Below, piece by piece: positions 760-837 of a stretch of DNA of 64,000 nt (the first letter of the stretch is position 1; every line of letters starts with the position of its first letter). The notes beneath the pieces were generated by a model. It did not search any database and was not told the DNA's origin. It saw nothing but the letters and a program-made list of their open reading frames with translations. A program made the position numbers and the translations under genes. This DNA is from an uncultured Bacteroidaceae bacterium (lineage in GTDB: Bacteria > Bacteroidota > Bacteroidia > Bacteroidales > Bacteroidaceae): NCBI GenBank assembly GCA_905236065.1, contig CAJONZ010000095.1:1-64000 (forward strand). The letters run 5' to 3'.

Positions 760-837
760 ACGCAGAACTCTATTGACGAATACAGTACTGCGTGAAATCG
801 AATACAGTTCTGCGTCATCTCCGATAGAGTTCTGCGT
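760..837 (-). repeat. 78-bp four-unit element, copy 1
   Basis: Reverse complement: ACGCAGAACTCT-10-ACGCAGAACTGT-10-ACGCAGTACTGT-10-AGAGTTCTGCGT; 22-bp unit spacing. Confidence 0.9.

What the first reader, a model, noticed from the sequence alone, without database searches (positions are those of the whole stretch)
760..837. Dispersed 78-bp element of four 12-nt units on exact 22-bp spacing, three direct plus one inverted (four copies in window)
Read in a common orientation, all four copies (760-837 rc, 30026-30103, 48122-48199, 62210-62287 rc) have the same architecture: unit-10-unit-10-unit-10-inverted unit, with unit consensus ACGCAG(A/T)ACT(C/G)T. Spacer 1 is ATCGGAGATG in three copies and ATCCGAGACA in the fourth. 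Spacer 2 is ATTCGATTTC in copies 1 and 3. Every copy is intergenic and the flanking genes are unrelated. A 22-bp step is about two helical turns, so the units would lie on one DNA face, which suits cooperative binding by a repeat-binding protein. Mismatches between unit 3 and the inverted unit (10/12 in copies 1 and 3, 11/12 in copy 4) are not compensated, which argues against selection for an RNA stem. I do not recognise this as a described family. This copy lies upstream of alaS.
Basis: partly seen in the sequence, partly recalled or inferred. Interest (0 to 1): 0.85.

Follow-up and report, generated by a model that had tools for sequence, protein, structure and literature searches.

The report
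Evenly spaced 22-bp intergenic repeat arrays
This Bacteroidaceae bacterium carries at least 91 copies of a short array of DNA sites set exactly 22 letters apart, always between genes and spaced roughly every 20,000 letters; sister species keep the same geometry and spacing with different letters, which suggests landing pads for a fast-evolving chromosome-organising protein.

Summary
The four window copies belong to a family of at least 91 elements in this 2.73-Mb Bacteroidaceae MAG. Almost all share one frame: 12-nt units on 22-bp steps converging on a dyad with fixed register. Three units on one side are strong; on the other, one is strong and two are decayed. None overlaps a predicted gene. 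They are strongly over-dispersed: 32 same-contig intervals, none below 8.9 kb, against 14.5 expected. Arm-to-arm pairing shows no covariation.

New here: the unit is species-specific, the geometry is not. None of 44 congeners has this unit. Yet G014/G038 carry 22-bp arrays of GGCAcAGTTCTCCC with the identical dyad register, and G026 carries TCCTTGCAAGGA + N10 (394 unit-pair hits). G038 and G026 arrays are also evenly spaced. A relic of the G014/G038 array lies beside one element in this genome.

Best reading: intergenic arrays for an oligomeric DNA-binding protein, probably chromosome-organising, with rapid motif turnover. The protein and the function are inferred, not shown. Main rival: a miniature mobile element with target immunity. 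A consistent tie to REP/RAYT was not supported.

The parts
760..837 (-). copy 1, 3+1 element: direct units 837-826, 815-804, 793-782 (read on - strand), inverted unit 760-771; a decayed extra inverted unit follows at about 738-751
30026..30125 (+). copy 2, 3+2 element: units 30026-30037, 30048-30059, 30070-30081, inverted 30092-30103 and degenerate inverted 30112-30125
48122..48199 (+). copy 3, 3+1 element: units 48122-48133, 48144-48155, 48166-48177, inverted 48188-48199; upstream of cca. The orthologous site in relative G014 holds a 22-bp array of a different unit
62210..62287 (-). copy 4, 3+1 element: units 62287-62276, 62265-62254, 62243-62232, inverted 62210-62221

Best explanation
Each element is an intergenic multi-site array for a sequence-specific, oligomeric (probably dimeric) DNA-binding protein. 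SHOWN: 12-14-nt sites sit on an exact 22-bp register, so they lie on one face of the helix, and two arms converge on a dyad of fixed spacing; at least 91 arrays, none in a predicted gene, lie on average about 21 kb apart and never (within a contig) closer than 8.9 kb; the site sequence differs between sister species while register, dyad and even spacing persist; a relic of the sister-species array sits beside one element here. INFERRED: one protein per species fills the array cooperatively and forms a nucleoprotein node; because the nodes are regular along the chromosome and largely indifferent to gene orientation, the likeliest role is chromosome organisation (domain boundary, anchor or condensation point) rather than control of single genes. 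The site sequence turns over quickly, with the protein's specificity co-evolving, and new arrays spread as whole units (spacers are position-specific).
For: Frame shared by nearly all of 91 copies. 0 of 91 overlap predicted genes although coding fraction is 0.86; tandem-gene cases 20 same/20 opposite orientation. Even spacing in three species with unrelated or diverged units: G000 0 intervals <8.9 kb vs 14.5 expected; G038 33 intervals, minimum 6.2 kb, about 9 expected below; G026 14 intervals, minimum 12.1 kb, about 5.9 expected below. Inverted-orientation neighbours are also never close (12 pairs, minimum 8.9 kb). Same 22-bp step with the G014/G038 unit and the G026 palindrome TCCTTGCAAGGA + N10; in G014/G038 plus-minus unit pairs occur only at offsets 21 and 43, the same core-to-core distance as in G000. 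No arm covariation. Fossil GGCAAAGTTCTCCC-8-AGCACTGCATTGCC beside the element on C40.
Against: No protein identified and no binding data. Even spacing could also come from target immunity of a mobile element. Convergent gene pairs are enriched (20 of 84 vs 26 of 314 other gaps; Fisher p = 3.5e-4), a preference also reported for REPs. All genomes are draft MAGs; gene calls are from a simple script; contig lengths in the G038 and most of the G026 spacing tests were estimated.
Confidence: 0.5

Rival explanations
1. A miniature mobile element (MITE-like) whose tandem units are transposase-binding sites, as at the ends of Tn7- or Mu-type elements, with target immunity preventing insertion near an existing copy.
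For: Copies share position-specific spacers, so they spread as whole units; opposed arms resemble two fused transposon ends; over-dispersion fits target immunity; most sites are not shared with G014/G038; strictly intergenic.
Against: No target-site duplication at any boundary tested; no empty site found among joined flanks; the outermost unit of one arm is decayed, whereas both termini of a mobile element should be kept; variable arrays of 5-8 units in G038 and mixed unit types in G026/G038 do not look like element ends; no transposase linked. Transposase families other than Y1 were not searched genome-wide.
Confidence: 0.25
2. A REP/BIME family moved by a RAYT (TnpA-REP) transposase.
For: One full Y1_Tnp gene in this genome, with an element about 0.9 kb downstream; in G038 the RAYT has an array 0.45 kb downstream; a weak Y1 match in G026 lies about 0.4 kb from an array. 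REPs are intergenic, species-specific and often in alternating orientation (PMC3733652).
Against: RAYTs here are flanked by their own, different palindromes (94-bp tandem array in G000; other palindromes in G006, G016, G019, G025, G003) with no 22-bp array found beside the RAYT in those genomes; G014 has arrays without a detected Y1_Tnp (84% complete MAG); no covariation as expected for a selected hairpin.
Confidence: 0.12
3. RNA-level elements: bidirectional transcription terminators or mRNA-stabilising hairpins.
For: Central inverted pair with A-rich left and T-rich right flank in part of the copies; enrichment between convergent genes.
Against: No covariation between arms, loop pairs anti-correlated (z -5.2); tandem genes show no orientation preference and 24 elements lie between divergent genes; terminators would not be expected to stay 9 kb or more apart; G026 arrays are simple direct arrays of palindromes.
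Confidence: 0.08

Closest known systems
REP/BIME elements with RAYT transposases (PMC3733652)
   Same: short, intergenic, high copy, species-specific, opposed orientations, favours convergent genes
   Different: exact two-turn register of 3+1 to 3+3 units, no covarying hairpin, no consistent RAYT link, even ~20-kb spacing, motif replaced while geometry is kept
BrickBuilt MITE/minisatellite of Porphyromonas gingivalis (PMC4596501)
   Same: Bacteroidales, always intergenic, species-limited, tandem 23-nt unit (the paper also cites 22-nt repeats in strain W83)
   Different: 19 copies with leader/tail and IS5-type terminal inverted repeats, tandem repeats without a dyad; no register or spacing rule reported in the parts read
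Chromosome-organising site/protein systems (MatS/MatP, parS/ParB, SlmA and Noc sites; from general knowledge)
   Same: many dispersed short palindromic protein sites acting on chromosome scale
   Different: those sites are conserved across related species, confined to or biased toward chromosome regions, and not in 22-bp multi-site arrays
Tn7/Mu-type transposon ends with repeated transposase sites and target immunity (from general knowledge)
   Same: repeated ~22-bp sites in opposed arms; spacing consistent with immunity
   Different: no TSD, no conserved termini, no cargo or transposase linked

Membership tests
REP/BIME with RAYT | 20-40 bp palindrome with selected hairpin | tested here: not met
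   own-arm versus swapped-arm pairing z = 0.0; single units of G000 are not hairpins
REP/BIME with RAYT | RAYT gene flanked by copies of the element | tested here: inconclusive
   adjacency in G000 and G038, a weak case in G026, none in five other genomes' RAYT loci; RAYTs have other palindromes; none detected in G014
REP/BIME with RAYT | GTAG or CGTC tag at one end of the palindrome | tested here: inconclusive
   GTAG/GTGG and GACG strings occur at unit edges but not as a constant unpaired tag (by eye)
MITE | terminal inverted repeats conserved at both ends | tested here: not met
   the outermost unit is conserved on one arm and decayed on the other
MITE | target-site duplication | tested here: not met
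   no convincing excess of matching flank k-mers for k = 3-9 over all boundary combinations tried
MITE | parent transposase in the genome | not tested
Chromosome-organising binding-site arrays | non-random distribution along the chromosome | tested here: met
   over-dispersed in G000, G038, G026
Chromosome-organising binding-site arrays | bound by a cognate protein | not testable with these tools
   needs pull-down or ChIP
Described RNA families | match to an Rfam model | tested here: not met
   only the L13 leader in the window

The most novel reading that the evidence does not exclude
A genus-wide chromosome-organising system in Bacteroidaceae in which an oligomeric protein loads on two-turn-phased site arrays placed about every 20 kb, and in which the recognised motif is replaced from species to species while register, dyad and spacing stay fixed: a bacterial counterpart of fast-evolving centromere-type DNA.
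Probability: 0.35. Interest if true: 0.95.

Novelty: new variant of a known kind. Interest (0 to 1): 0.82.

Why it matters
If the arrays are architectural, they give a sequence-defined map of chromosome domains in a group of bacteria whose nucleoid biology is little known, and a rare case where a DNA-binding specificity and over 90 sites change together within a genus. If they are mobile, they show a miniature element with strong genome-wide spacing control. Either way, conserved geometry with replaced sequence is invisible to ordinary repeat or motif annotation, so such systems may be widely missed. The question becomes testable: the 78-mer is bait for one protein, and several sister species give matched controls with different bait.

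Tried and rejected
RNA or ssDNA hairpin: rejected by the swapped-arm test. Target-site duplication and empty-site search: nothing (the one joined-flank hit, on C34, is a match to that element's own neighbourhood near a contig end). RAYT as mover: adjacency in two to three genomes but inconsistent elsewhere. Plasmid, phage and viral origin: no match. Presence in other species: two isolated single-pair matches in GTDB contigs of unrelated taxa, taken as chance (that tool may omit the window's own genome or close kin). Profile R1 of this species finds nothing in 367 kb of relatives; profile R2 of G014/G038 finds one strong match (plus one chance-level) in 458 kb here, the C40 relic. Deletion between direct repeats as cause of the spacing: inverted neighbours are equally far apart. 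A second dispersed palindrome as spacing control had only 8 copies and was not informative.

Full report
OBSERVATION. The window lies on contig C95 of a 2.73-Mb, 130-contig draft genome, 88% complete. Its nearest named protein relatives are MAGs labelled Bacteroidaceae.

COPY NUMBER AND ANATOMY. The pattern unit-N10-unit has 209 matches in the genome and 0 for the reversed control. Placed on the dyad, nearly all copies share one frame: strong side 0.6, 0.6 and 1.0 mean mismatches of 14 in units 1-3; weak side 1.1, 5.8 and 7.7; position 4 and beyond about 9-10, the random level. So the archetype is up to three units converging from each side, one arm usually decayed in its outer two units. Spacers are position-specific (ATCGGAGATG first, ATTCGATTTC second), hence copies spread as whole units.

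SETTING. No copy overlaps a predicted gene, with 86% of the sampled DNA coding. Between tandem genes the orientation is 20 same, 20 opposite; 24 are between divergent and 20 between convergent genes, the last enriched. The gene calls come from a simple hexamer script.

SPACING. The 32 same-contig intervals have a minimum of 8.9 kb; uniform placement gives 14.5 such short intervals on average and never none in 20,000 simulations. Inverted neighbours obey the same limit as direct ones, so deletion between direct repeats is not the reason.

RELATIVES. None of 44 congeners holds the unit, nor does any GTDB r220 contig beyond two isolated single-pair matches in unrelated taxa. At the cca gene, however, the closest relative G014 has, at the orthologous site of window copy 3, a 22-bp array of GCACAGTTCTCCC. 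G014 and G038 share this family, together with GGCAMTGCAKTGCC units in the same register. Plus-minus unit pairs there occur only at offsets 21 and 43; counted between the common core positions (CAGWACT here, CAGTTCT there), this is the same dyad distance as here. G038 has about 70 arrays, minimum interval 6.2 kb, about 9 shorter ones expected (contig lengths partly estimated). A lag scan of other congeners shows intergenic arrays at lags 21-23 and near-zero counts at most neighbouring lags. The clearest is G026: the perfect palindrome TCCTTGCAAGGA plus N10, 394 unit-pair hits (a palindrome counts on both strands) against 0-3 in each other genome, again evenly spaced, with a second palindromic unit type in the same array (L304). 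About four of 21 G014/G038 arrays examined sit at a site also occupied here, so positions mostly turn over.

A FOSSIL. In this genome, beside the element on C40, stands GGCAAAGTTCTCCC-8-AGCACTGCATTGCC, two units of the sister-species family on the exact 22-bp step. It supports replacement of an older unit family by the present one in this lineage.

STRUCTURE VERSUS BINDING. Pairing between the two arms of the same element is no better than between arms of different elements (34.13 versus 34.14 of 66; z 0.0), and the loop is anti-correlated. This speaks for independent double-stranded sites rather than a selected hairpin. Several units in relatives are perfect or near-perfect palindromes, as expected for a dimeric binder; the unit here has only a palindromic core, CAGTACTG, in some copies.

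MECHANISM. I favour protein-binding arrays with a chromosome-scale role (0.5). The strongest points are the fixed register under changing sequence and the even spacing in three species. The main rival is a mobile element with target immunity (0.25): no TSD, no empty site and no conserved termini count against it, but transposases other than Y1 were not searched. REP/RAYT (0.12) has suggestive adjacency in two to three genomes yet RAYTs here carry other palindromes. An RNA terminator role is least likely (0.08).

KNOWN OR NEW. Nearest in kind are REP/BIMEs (PMC3733652) and the 23-nt BrickBuilt MITE of P. gingivalis (PMC4596501). Neither matches the dyad, the register kept under motif replacement, or the spacing. 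A survey of prokaryote satellites (PMC6749651, part read) says transposed non-coding satellite families are rare. Word and sequence searches of the held open-access library found no description; subscription journals are largely missing from it.

LIMITS. Draft MAGs, capped hit lists, no expression or binding data, no candidate protein.

Noticed in passing
L072:8900-9994 (contig C10 of the same genome): A full RAYT-type Y1 transposase gene (147 aa) followed by about four 94-bp tandem copies containing the palindrome GACGCTGGAAGCGTC, a different REP-like family; an element of this finding lies about 0.9 kb downstream of the gene.
   Followed up: partly
G038:C23:37777-38738 and G026:C11:57722-58393: In two relatives a 22-bp array also lies within 0.5 kb of a Y1_Tnp match (full in G038, weak in G026); suggestive, but not seen in five other genomes' RAYT loci.
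   Followed up: partly
flanks of elements on C62:12.1k, C115:0.3k, C37:5.2k, C83:21.6k, C18:18.4k: A second dispersed repeat of about 130-365 bp, 82-94% identical, lies beside several elements.
   Followed up: no
window 48303-48320: Palindrome GCCTCGGAGAGGCCGCAC beside copy 3; 8 copies in the genome, several next to elements, two 250 bp apart on C99.
   Followed up: partly
L304 (G026:C1, around 86.6 kb): One array mixes two palindromic unit types, CGTTATAACG and TCCTTGCAAGGA, apparently in the same 22-bp register.
   Followed up: no
window 53661-53731: L13-Bacteroidia ribosomal leader RNA (RF03127).
   Followed up: no
window 32949-33742: Imperfect coding repeats (71 and 135 nt) inside the 1127-aa ORF at 32657-36040.
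   Followed up: no
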